Below, piece by piece: positions 12,202 through 58,383 of a stretch of DNA of 64,000 nt. The position numbers were made by a program, and so were the translations under genes. The notes beneath the pieces were generated by a model, which was given only the letters and a program-made list of their open reading frames with translations, was not told the DNA's origin and did no database searches. This DNA comes from Apostichopus japonicus (taxonomy: Eukaryota > Echinodermata > Holothuroidea > Aspidochirotida > Stichopodidae): contig NC_092583.1 in the NCBI RefSeq assembly GCF_037975245.1, positions 11,425,764 through 11,489,763 of the forward strand, in the 5' to 3' direction. Every line of letters begins with the position of its first letter. Position 1 is the stretch's first letter.

Positions 12202-12334
12202 ATGGTGTCACACAGACCCCATTGGTTGCTGGCGGTGGTGTTATTGGTGGGGATATGTTGGTCCTTCTCTGGTGCTCAAGAAGATGGATCCCTTAGTATC
12301 CCGTTAAGCATATCTTCTGCCGGTTCTTCATCAG
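12202..12334 (+). CDS. Gene A exon 1: signal peptide and Ser-rich linker
   Basis: The first ATG in frame sits in a good context (CAAGATGG), and gene B also has CAAGATG. The product starts [20 protein letters not shown], with a hydrophobic core and likely cleavage before QED. A Ser-rich linker follows. The donor TCAG|GTAAGT leaves phase 1. The same frame stays open upstream but has no earlier ATG. Confidence 0.8.
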
Positions 12335-56100: not shown

Positions 56101-58383
56101 ATGCATAGTTCACCCAGGGAGTTGTTATGGAACAACTCCCTGGTTCACCCTAGTCTTGTTTAGACCCTAGTATGTACATGCCTAGTCTATACCTTTCTTA
56201 TTCACAAAGCTATTTTCCCGTATCTATTTGCTGTACTGCCCAGAGAACGCCCGCGGCAACGATTTAGATTGATACAGTGATCGGACAGATCCTCGGGCAT
56301 ATAAAATACAGTGGGCAAACACATTCGTGGTAAGCACAAACGGACTCTGAGGCATGTTCAATTTGCCACGCGAGAAAAAGAGTATTACAAACGACTTGGC
56401 CAAGACTTAAGTTCACCCGAAATACGTCGTCGGCAGGTCTGGATCATGAGAACACGGAATAACGAGGCCTAGTTTACTTCAACTGATATATTATGGTTCA
56501 CTTTGGGATTGGGTTTAGATCTTCCTTAAGTAAACAACCATACAAAATAATAATGACATAAATTAGTCTTATAGAACATCGAGCATGCACGCCTGCAAGC
56601 CTGCACTGGGGAAAGGGTGGGGGTGGGGCCGGTTCAATGTTTTACAGGTTGGAGCTTTTCCCAGCCCGTATACATCGAGCACAACAACTATACGGTACGT
56701 GTAATAAGCCCTGAAGGTATTATTGCTAAAGTACTCTGTGAATGCCATTTCCAACGTTTAATGTCGTATTTAGATTAGAATGATTGTGATCGCGTCGGTC
56801 ACCTACAGTATCATTAAAACTCAATGCCAGCCCTCCCCCTGCTTATAGAAATAGTGGTCAAGTCTTTAGACAATTGCACCTCTCGTGACCGTGAACTTAG
56901 AGAAAGTCATACATCTTTGAGGGAAGCGATTGTTTGTTGAAGAACATCAACATTGCTTAAATGTTAGGATGCTTAAATTTGCAAAAAGTTACTCCATGCC
57001 ACACACCCCACTCCACCCACCCCCCCCCCCAAATAATCCGTTAGTTTCGAATTAGACAATAATGTGTCTCAATGTTGAAAAATATGATTTAGCAGACGGC
57101 AGTAAAAATGCATCATGAAGTTTCAATGCGTGTAACCTTTTTTTGTTTATACTTTCTATCATATTGAAGAGGCAATATACTAACGAACGCAATATTTCAT
57201 GTTAAGACTTCACAGATTCGAAAATTTAAACATTCAATGTTTAAACATTAAACCCATACAGCCTATTCTGTAGGCTACAGAGCGGCCTATACATGCAGTC
57301 GTAGCTTTGTTTGCTGTATGTATGTATGCATGTATATATGTATGTATGTATGTATACAGCTAACTAACGTGAAGATTGTAGTACTTCCTGCTATCAAAGA
57401 TAATGGTGGACCACAATAATTGTTGGTCTAACTAAAGATCAAAGAGTTTACCAAACAACGCATGCCATAATTTCAAAAAGCTAATCACACATGCCCACTA
57501 CAGTAACGGTAAGTAACACGAGGTGAAAATCAACCAACAACCATTGTGACACCGAGCACATGGATGCACGCCTCGCTGAGCAATTACCAAGGCTAGTTAT
57601 AAGACATCTGGTTACAAAACATATCTTGATCTTTCGACCGTATAATGAAGCGGTTTTACCTTTACCCTACATTTCGGCAGTTTCATCTTACAAAATACCA
57701 CTGAATCAATTGGATTCACAAAATGCATGAAAAGGCCAGAAGTTGGTATAATAACAACGATTTTCTTCGAATGAAAAAGGAACTTATGCCAAATATGGGA
57801 GTTTACGAGGCCGACCTTGTATAGAGAGGCATATTATCATGCTCATCATAAGTAATGATGATTTAGTCAGAGCTCATCACAGAGTTATCTTATATCAAAG
57901 GTTTATTTTATGAATAATTACTAAACTAAGAACCACTCCACGTTCTCTGTAGGCGAGGGGAGGGTGTGTAACACGTAGATTGGTAAGGGCTGGGGTGGGG
58001 AGGAGATTGTTAGGCGGGGGGGAGATAAGTCAAAGAAAGAAGTTGCAATGAGTCCTACATACCGCCACATTTGTGTTACAATTTGGGAACATGGCGTTAT
58101 GGCGACTTGCACTTTTATTCTCTTCTCCCTCTTCTGCTCTCTATATGCTCACTATTACAAAATATTGAAGAGATTTTTTTCCCCAAATATTTGAACATTT
58201 AGAATGCTATACCGTTTACTTATTAAGTTTGGTCTTTTTTTTACCTTCTGATGCGCTAACTGATGCTGATGCTGATATGCTACCGTCACTCTCACTGATG
58301 GACTCCTGAGCATTGGCAAAAGACAAGAAGCCGACGATTAAGGCAATCAATAATACGGTGGTTATCCTCCTTCGTCCCTCCAT
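46702..58383 (-). CDS. Gene C: secreted VWC protein with four tandem modules (6 exons seen)
   Basis: Exons, in transcript order: 58383-58245, 54299-54096, 53373-52921, 51319-50882, 48170-47739, 47166-46702. They total 2131 nt, at least 710 residues. The architecture is the same as gene B: signal peptide, Ser/Asp-rich linker, VWC, modules 1-4, all introns phase 1 and GT-AG. Exon lengths match gene B exactly for exons 2, 3 and 4 and within one codon for 5 and 6. Gene B starts 7.9 kb downstream on the same strand, so B and C are a tandem pair. The terminal exon after the CCAG|GTAAGC donor is not identified. The frame is open and conserved. Predicted to be extracellular; biological role unknown. 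Confidence 0.86.
47739..48170 (-). CDS. Gene C exon 5: module 3
   Basis: 432 nt, phase 1 to phase 1. It begins AIFNTLVPDLTGDFPA. Landmarks: [15 protein letters not shown] loop, VCSDIPFICFEL (C-x6-C) and VECVDFSKYC (C-x6-C). The donor AAAG|GTTAGG is weaker than the others but keeps frame and phase. Confidence 0.87.
49070..49470. repeat. ~146-bp tandem repeat with TGACCT-like half sites
   Basis: Units recognised by GAG(T/C)TATC(A/G)TGTTTA at about 49115, 49260 and 49407, each followed by TTGACCTC or similar. A related single unit lies at 53880-53960 (GAAGTTATCGTGTTTACCAG). Confidence 0.75.
49523..50389 (+). mobile_element. Decayed PIF/Harbinger element (HARBI1-like transposase fragment)
   Basis: Near 50080-50218 two adjacent frames read FPQVVGAVYGH and then GPDEYVFVSRKGRHAINVQ, a clear HARBI1-type DDE transposase signature with a frameshift and a missing acidic residue. 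An upstream stretch, SSASRALRGVTRALVQ, fits the N-terminal part. The ends are imperfect inverted repeats: TTCCACAAAGAGTTACGC on the left and, inverted, TGCCACAAAGACTTAC on the right, with more inverted CTTACGCTTGAT motifs inside. The exact outer ends and TSD are not resolved. It lies in gene C intron 4. Confidence 0.8.
50390..50705. repeat. ~320-bp repeat, intron 4 copy (gene C)
   Basis: Starts CAGGTGTAAACAAATTAGTG and ends near GGTGCTACACC. Contains TGTCATTCCAAGAATACAGG and TTCCTGCAATGAAGTGACAG, both exact in the intron 3 copy. It abuts the Harbinger relic. Confidence 0.88.
50882..51319 (-). CDS. Gene C exon 4: module 2
   Basis: 438 nt, phase 1 to phase 1. It begins GLTATDLDW. Landmarks: LWRVGMF, PDGDGDR loop, IGCTEVRYICVEF (C-x6-C) and VTCKEHEC (C-x4-C). 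A related ~330-bp repeat lies on either side of this exon, in introns 3 and 4. Confidence 0.88.
52378..52717. repeat. ~330-bp repeat, intron 3 copy (gene C)
   Basis: Direct repeat of 50390-50705 in the same orientation, about 80 percent alike by eye with a short extra segment (AAGACGTCACTCT). The two copies bracket exon 4. Confidence 0.88.
52921..53373 (-). CDS. Gene C exon 3: module 1
   Basis: 453 nt, phase 1 to phase 1. Landmarks: [23 protein letters not shown] loop, PPWVW, GGTCDDYKYFC (C-x6-C) and LIDCVPLGEC (C-x5-C). The usual CVEF is CIKF here. The acceptor is TCTTCAG|AA and the donor CACG|GTGAGT. Confidence 0.88.
53880..53960. repeat. Single unit of the GTTATCGTGTTTAC repeat
   Basis: GAAGTTATCGTGTTTACCAG followed by TTTCAGGCAGAACTG. 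Same family as 49070-49470; in gene C intron 2. Confidence 0.65.
54096..54299 (-). CDS. Gene C exon 2: VWC domain
   Basis: 204 nt, phase 1 to phase 1. Complete VWC pattern: NPCSFRG, LDPCTVCTC, NGTTTC, IESCP, SGC, CCPQCP. The acceptor TTTTGCTAG lies just after an expanded (CT)n pyrimidine tract (a (GA)n microsatellite on the + strand). The donor is ATA|GTAAGT. Confidence 0.88.
54322..54361. repeat. (GA)n microsatellite serving as polypyrimidine tract
   Basis: On the minus (gene C) strand this is (CT)n ending about 20 bp before the TTTTGCTAG acceptor of exon 2. Confidence 0.85.
56115..56142. mobile_element. 28-bp palindrome with flanking repeat, possible terminal-repeat-only transposon relic
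   Basis: Perfect 12-bp inverted arms (CAGGGAGTTGTT) around the 4-base centre ATGG, flanked by GTTCACC(C) on both sides. CAG ends with a 7-8 bp duplication fit hAT-type insertion. It sits in gene C intron 1 next to the block shared with gene A. Confidence 0.55.
56153..56410 (-). repeat. Intron-1 block shared with gene A
   Basis: Partner of 17738-18000. It lies 1.85 kb before gene C exon 2, against 0.7 kb in gene A. Not seen in gene B intron 1. One + strand frame stays open at 56356-56472 ([20 protein letters not shown]), so an old mobile-element origin is possible. Confidence 0.8.
57315..57357. repeat. (TATG)n microsatellite
   Basis: GTATGTATG-type tetranucleotide repeat in gene C intron 1. 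Confidence 0.85.
58245..58383 (-). CDS. Gene C exon 1: signal peptide
   Basis: Starts MEGRRRITTVLLIALIVGFL with likely cleavage after FANA before QES. A linker follows in which a GCATCA-type repeat encodes SASASVSAS. The donor GAAG|GTAAAA leaves phase 1. The Gln-Glu start after cleavage is shared by all three genes. Confidence 0.83.

What the first reader, a model, noticed from the sequence alone, without database searches (positions are those of the whole stretch)
12202..58383. Three-gene cluster of secreted VWC proteins built from a four-cysteine module I cannot name
Seen: a signal peptide, one VWC domain and one (A) or four (B, C) ~145-155 residue modules, each with (L/M)(W/Y)-x-x-(G/S), a DG loop, C-x(6,7)-C-(V/I/F)-(E/K)-(F/L) and a final C-x(4,6)-C. 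Known: VWC domains are extracellular. Inferred: a lineage-expanded matrix, mucus or adhesive protein family. This is my best candidate for an undescribed system.
Basis: partly seen in the sequence, partly recalled or inferred. Interest (0 to 1): 0.8.

Follow-up and report, generated by a model that had tools for sequence, protein, structure and literature searches.

The report
Free-standing SURF proteins copied from procollagen
Three neighbouring genes encode secreted proteins built from a known echinoderm collagen add-on, the SURF module, and they appear to be copies of the front end of a fibrillar collagen gene without the collagen itself.

Summary
In detail: three genes, each with a signal-peptide exon, one VWC exon and one (A) or four (B, C) exons of a four-cysteine module. 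The module can be named. "VWC followed by a series of four-cysteine modules" is the published layout of some sea urchin fibrillar procollagen N-propeptides, where the module is called SURF (PMC2852846, passages). I tested this in the window's own genome. Two tandem genes on contig C4 carry VWC, then homologous modules, then Gly-X-Y exons, then fibrillar-collagen C-propeptide exons. All nine window modules have as best hit, among the 21 collagen-gene modules compared, a module of one of those genes, in the same order; a tree groups each of the four types with that module. The window has no Gly-X-Y run of six or more, and contig C23 has no C-propeptide match. The family is much expanded: 62 VWC and 113 plus 107 overlapping module matches genome-wide. 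Best reading: collagen-free, acidic, secreted N-propeptide-like proteins of connective tissue. The module is known; the amplified collagen-free family looks like a new variant. Function and last exons are not shown.

The parts
12202..12334 (+). Gene A exon 1: signal peptide and Ser-rich linker
   Evidence: ATG, hydrophobic core, GTAAGT donor in phase 1; cleavage site not computed
18705..18908 (+). Gene A VWC exon (204 nt, 10 Cys)
   Evidence: Pfam PF00093 E 1.7e-7; splice sites
19439..19894 (+). Gene A SURF module, type 1
   Evidence: type-1 clade in tree
38678..38801 (-). Gene B exon 1: signal peptide and Ser-rich linker
34858..35061 (-). Gene B VWC exon
   Evidence: Pfam PF00093 E 1.4e-7
34063..34515 (-). 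Gene B SURF module 1
   Evidence: structure model
33388..33825 (-). Gene B SURF module 2
31608..32036 (-). Gene B SURF module 3
30101..30568 (-). Gene B SURF module 4
58245..58383 (-). Gene C exon 1: signal peptide and Ser-rich linker
54096..54299 (-). Gene C VWC exon
   Evidence: 10 Cys, 70% identical to B's VWC
52921..53373 (-). Gene C SURF module 1
   Evidence: genome search
50882..51319 (-). Gene C SURF module 2
   Evidence: genome search
47739..48170 (-). Gene C SURF module 3 (donor GTTAGG, weaker)
46702..47166 (-). Gene C SURF module 4

Best explanation
The four-cysteine modules are SURF modules. Genes A, B and C are members of an expanded family of collagen-free VWC-SURF genes that descend from the 5' part (signal peptide, VWC, first SURF module and three consecutive later SURF modules) of a fibrillar procollagen gene like the one on contig C4 at 8.36-8.42 Mb. 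SHOWN: the exon anatomy, homology to modules of two fibrillar procollagen genes, collinearity of the four types with one of them among the modules compared, and absence of Gly-X-Y runs from the window. INFERRED: the proteins are secreted into connective tissue as soluble, strongly acidic (calculated pI 4.2-4.6 for the parts known) N-propeptide-like molecules. There they would sit at or between collagen fibrils, as the retained 5-alpha N-propeptide, the cleaved 2-alpha N-propeptides and fibrosurfin are reported to do in sea urchins, and tune fibril assembly, spacing or cohesion. They would do so without adding a triple helix, possibly competing with the procollagen's own N-propeptide for the same partners.
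For: VWC, module array, Gly-X-Y exons and COLFI exons in order and on one strand in two tandem genes on C4. Genome-wide, C2 matches C4:8406310 at 41%, E 4.3e-28, and C1 matches C4:8416008 at 27%, E 2.7e-14. Nine of 9 best hits are collinear with gene 1 among the 21 collagen-gene modules compared, 26-47% identity. The tree has one gene-1 module in each of the four type clades: 99/95, 97/93, 100/98, 86/85. The published architecture VWC-SURFn-helix is in PMC2852846 (passages); location and proposed role of SURF proteins in PMC10817530 (passages). No Gly-X-Y run of 6 or more in 4290 window ORFs of 8 aa or more, nor in the 10 kb downstream of four further arrays, by the pattern that finds 9 and 13 runs downstream of the C4 arrays. 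COLFI matches lie only on C4, C22 and C8, so on none of C23, C7, C17, C19, C20 and C21, where the other VWC-SURF genes are. The VWC's nearest solved relative is the collagen II VWC, E 0.0015.
Against: No published SURF sequence could be compared (none in the libraries used), so the name rests on architecture plus genome context. A1's best-hit margin is only 0.4 bits, the type-1 collagen module sits on a long branch, and the type-4 clade (86/85) is only moderately supported. Not all procollagen modules could be fetched; the module nearest gene 2's VWC (8469944, second-best C4 match of C1, E 5.4e-11) was not in the tree. Direction (collagen to collagen-free) is inferred; the tree is midpoint-rooted. 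B and C end module 4 at a splice donor and their last exons are unknown. My first reading that two relatives stop right after module 4 did not hold: C23 11.53 Mb has a GTATGT donor exactly there, and only in C7 13.85 Mb is that donor absent. No expression or protein data. Function is by analogy only.
Confidence: 0.7

Rival explanations
1. The genes are the 5' ends of real procollagens whose helix exons were missed or lie beyond large introns.
For: Same VWC-SURF start as the C4 procollagens; B and C end at a GTAAG donor after module 4, so at least one more exon probably exists, and a relative at C23 11.53 Mb also has a donor there.
Against: No run of 6 or more Gly-X-Y triplets in 4290 window ORFs of 8 aa or more, although gene B starts only about 8 kb downstream of C's last known module on the same strand; no COLFI match on contig C23 (0 of 20 matches).
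Confidence: 0.08
2. They are fibrosurfin, the sea urchin interfibrillar SURF protein, or its direct orthologues.
For: Fibrosurfin carries SURF modules (PMC10817530, passages).
Against: Fibrosurfin also has EGF-like modules (recalled, not from a call). An EGF-like cysteine pattern was found in 0 of 1617 window ORFs of 25 aa or more and in none of the fetched loci scanned. Whether fibrosurfin starts with a VWC I could not check.
Confidence: 0.08
3. They are skeletal (biomineral) matrix proteins, like the VWC proteins of the sea star Patiria skeleton.
For: Strong acidity; five VWC proteins listed in the P. miniata skeleton with no counterparts in S. purpuratus skeletal proteomes (PMC5460417, passages).
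Against: Those proteins are listed as kielin/chordin-like and their module content is not given in the passages seen. The named relatives found here are procollagens.
Confidence: 0.12
4. They are growth-factor (BMP) binders in which the VWC is the active part and the SURF modules are spacers.
For: VWC domains of CV2, chordin and procollagen IIA bind BMPs (recalled); weak sequence matches to CV2 VWC, E 0.19-0.21.
Against: Only one VWC per gene; the closest solved VWC is collagen II's; SURF modules under purifying selection suggest the modules matter.
Confidence: 0.08

Closest known systems
SURF modules of sea urchin fibrillar procollagen N-propeptides (1-alpha putative long form, 2-alpha, 5-alpha)
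   Same: Four-cysteine module in series directly after one VWC domain; each window module is an exon; matching layout found in two procollagen genes of this same genome.
   Different: Window genes have 1 or 4 modules found, against 11 (5-alpha) or a putative 16 (1-alpha), and no collagen helix or C-propeptide in the window.
Fibrosurfin (sea urchin interfibrillar protein)
   Same: Protein with SURF modules, interfibrillar, function unknown (PMC10817530, passages).
   Different: Window genes start with VWC and show no EGF-like pattern; direct sequence comparison was not possible.
Fibrillar collagen N-propeptide VWC (collagen II, PDB 1u5m)
   Same: VWC, E 0.0015 by sequence.
   Different: Only the VWC matches; human fibrillar collagens are not described with SURF modules.
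Sea star Sfp6 and Patiria skeletal VWC proteins
   Same: Secreted echinoderm VWC proteins (PMC9382459; PMC5460417; passages).
   Different: Sfp6 is a Glu-rich disordered region plus repeated VWC; no SURF modules are mentioned in the passages seen.

Membership tests
SURF module | About 145-residue module with four cysteines (length recalled; four cysteines) | tested here: met
   142-155 aa, exactly 4 Cys in 9 of 9; 17 of 22 homologous rows of 120 aa or more (a few overlapping, cut-off copies) from the C4 procollagen genes have 4
[quoted passage not shown]
   Homologous modules lie there in two genes on C4
SURF module | Sequence similarity to published sea urchin SURF modules | not testable with these tools
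   No eukaryote sequence collection; no significant match in Pfam or PDB
Fibrillar procollagen alpha chain | Gly-X-Y triple helix | tested here: not met
   0 runs of 6 or more triplets in 4290 window ORFs of 8 aa or more
Fibrillar procollagen alpha chain | COLFI C-propeptide | tested here: not met
   20 own-genome matches to PF01410, on C4 (8), C22 (9) and C8 (3), none on the window's contig C23
Fibrosurfin | EGF-like modules with SURF modules (recalled) | tested here: inconclusive
   EGF-like cysteine pattern in 0 of 1617 window ORFs and 0 in fetched loci scanned, but terminal exons are unknown
Kielin/chordin-like protein | Several VWC domains in one protein (recalled) | tested here: not met
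   One VWC per gene; three in the window
CARDB / other Ig-like beta-sandwich families | Significant sequence or fold match | tested here: inconclusive

The most novel reading that the evidence does not exclude
Echinoderms of this lineage turned the N-propeptide of a fibrillar procollagen into a free-standing, tandemly amplified gene family. Soluble VWC-SURF proteins, made separately from collagen, then regulate fibril surfaces or interfibrillar cohesion in mutable connective tissue by mimicking or competing with the collagen-attached SURF propeptides.
Probability: 0.4. Interest if true: 0.65.

Novelty: new variant of a known kind. Interest (0 to 1): 0.45.

Why it matters
SURF-containing molecules have been suggested to play a role in the variable tensility of echinoderm connective tissue, whose mechanism is still not settled (PMC10817530, passages). 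A large family of collagen-free SURF genes gives testable candidates for that role. It would also be a clear case of a collagen propeptide becoming an independent gene family. No Pfam model matched the module, so annotation pipelines that rely on Pfam would see only the VWC.

Full report
What is there. The window holds three genes of one family. Gene A (+ strand) has exons 12202-12334, 18705-18908 and 19439-19894. Gene B (- strand) has six exons found between 38801 and 30101, gene C (- strand) six between 58383 and 46702. Each VWC and module exon (12 of 12) is a multiple of three with phase-1 boundaries and AG/GT flanks, and no spliced frame has a stop. This is the exon pattern of shuffled extracellular domains (established knowledge). 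After the signal peptide comes a short Ser-rich stretch, then a 10-cysteine VWC (Pfam PF00093 for A and B), then one or four modules. The known mature parts of A, B and C, counted from the QE after the signal peptide, have calculated pI 4.64, 4.17 and 4.27. VWC and module exons evolve under constraint: dN 0.17-0.42, with saturated synonymous changes in 8 of 9 comparisons (dS 2.12 in the ninth). The terminal exons were not found.

The modules are one family. A profile made from three of the four positional types finds the fourth at 60-79 bits, 9 of 9 modules, against at most 7.6 bits in 400-600 shuffles per type. In a tree of the nine, B3/C3 (99/99) and B4/C4 (96/95) pair; type 1 gets 88/95; type 2 is left over. 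In the larger tree B2/C2 pair at 98/92. So a four-module gene probably existed before B and C split. Gene A has type 1 only.

Naming the module. No significant Pfam, NCBIfam or PDB sequence match was found. The VWC's nearest solved relative is the procollagen II VWC (E 0.0015). This brought back from memory the sea urchin SURF module, and I then looked for it in print. [quoted passage not shown]

Test in the same genome. The window lies at C23:11425764-11489763 of a 671.6 Mb genome of 35 contigs. Module C2 gives 113 matches, module C1 107 and the B VWC 62 at E of 0.01 or better; the tool calls these lower bounds, and the two module lists overlap. On C4, VWC matches at 8416823 and 8471904 are followed on the same strand by module arrays. 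In the 10 kb downstream of each array, Gly-X-Y runs of 6 or more triplets occur only on that strand: 9 runs (78 triplets) and 13 runs (159 triplets), many of 6, 11 or 12 triplets, with GPPGPPGPPG stretches. Further downstream on that strand lie fibrillar-collagen C-propeptide exons (8363519-8360833 and 8437062-8435227). I did not read the stretches between the fetched 10 kb and the COLFI exons. I take these as two tandem fibrillar procollagens with VWC-SURFn N-propeptides.

Relation of the window genes to them. Genome-wide, C2 matches C4:8406310 at 41% (E 4.3e-28) and C1 matches C4:8416008 at 27% (E 2.7e-14). Against 21 procollagen modules of at least 115 aa available to me (6 of gene 1, 15 of gene 2), the best hit of all nine window modules is a gene-1 module. 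Type 1 hits 8416002, the one next to the VWC. Types 2, 3 and 4 hit 8406310, 8405301 and 8404573, three consecutive ones in the same order; two available modules (8412569, 8409284) lie between the first and these. Margins over the second hit run from 0.4 bits (A1) to 51 bits (C3). A tree of 85 modules places exactly one gene-1 module with each type: 26 rows 99/95, 15 rows 97/93, 14 rows 100/98, 9 rows 86/85. The type-1 collagen module is on a long branch, and the tree is midpoint-rooted. With that limit, the window genes look like copies of a procollagen 5' part: signal peptide, VWC, SURF 1 and three consecutive later SURFs.

Are they collagen-free? The window has no Gly-X-Y run of six or more in 4290 ORFs of 8 aa or more (one search gave the same for longer ORFs) and no EGF-like pattern (0 of 1617 ORFs). 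Gene C's unknown end must fit into about 8 kb before gene B starts, unless the genes interleave. Downstream of four other VWC-module arrays (C23 5.55 and 1.76 Mb, C7 13.84 Mb, C23 11.52 Mb) 10 kb hold no Gly-X-Y run. COLFI matches occur only on C4, C22 and C8 (20 of 20), so none accompanies the VWC-SURF genes on C23, C7, C17, C19, C20 or C21. B and C end module four at a splice donor, so they have at least one more exon, unknown. In one search I first read two relatives as stopping right after module four. On checking, C23 11.53 Mb has a GTATGT donor there, and only C7 13.85 Mb lacks it, so that argument is withdrawn for the first and stays open for the second.

Extent of the family. Ten VWC matches lie within C23:11.42-11.69 Mb, three of them in the window. 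Of the 30 VWC loci fetched, 24 have a module within about 1.5 kb (without: L033, L035, L037, L054, L056, L057). Contigs C17, C20 and C21 hold 28 of the 107 matches of module C1.

Verdict. Observation confirmed. The module is known (SURF), so the 'undescribed system' claim falls. The collagen-free, amplified VWC-SURF family with collinear origin in a procollagen N-propeptide was not seen in the papers searched (listings; open-licence papers only) and is reported as a new variant of a known kind.

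Noticed in passing
window 24085-24159, - strand: A tRNA-like gene (Rfam tRNA, 47.2 bits; ARAGORN tRNA-Cys, anticodon ACA); probably part of a tRNA-derived SINE (inference).
   Followed up: no
window 35410-35709, + strand: Fragment of a reverse transcriptase (RVT_1, E 5.2e-9) in the intron between gene B's exon 1 and its VWC exon.
   Followed up: no
window 2292-2365, 9134-9207, 60575-60648, with a related inverted copy near 28174: Dispersed repeat with a conserved core; by eye also similar to a duplicated 22-mer at 30718-30762 just upstream of module B4.
   Followed up: no
window 26590-27748 and 22948-23375: Long tandem arrays (period about 53/161 and 35/72) between genes A and B.
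   Followed up: no
G000 C7:13849977-13855199 and C7:13978589-13990842: Two nearly identical VWC + four-module genes about 135 kb apart (identical type-1 modules): a recent duplication, or haplotype copies in the assembly. The copy at 13.85 Mb lacks the usual donor after module 4.
   Followed up: partly
G000 C17:13.18-13.63 Mb, C21:13.28-13.47 Mb and C21:8.44 Mb: Further clusters of VWC + type-1 SURF genes with a second module about 5-11 kb away; very similar copies on two contigs.
   Followed up: partly
G000 C23:11635182 and C23:11570533: Module matches with internal stops: likely decayed members of the same cluster.
   Followed up: no
G000 C22:37478-43650, C22:5916708-5920945 and C22:6444235-6445580: Further fibrillar-collagen C-propeptide matches; no module match on C22, so these collagens may lack SURF modules.
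   Followed up: no
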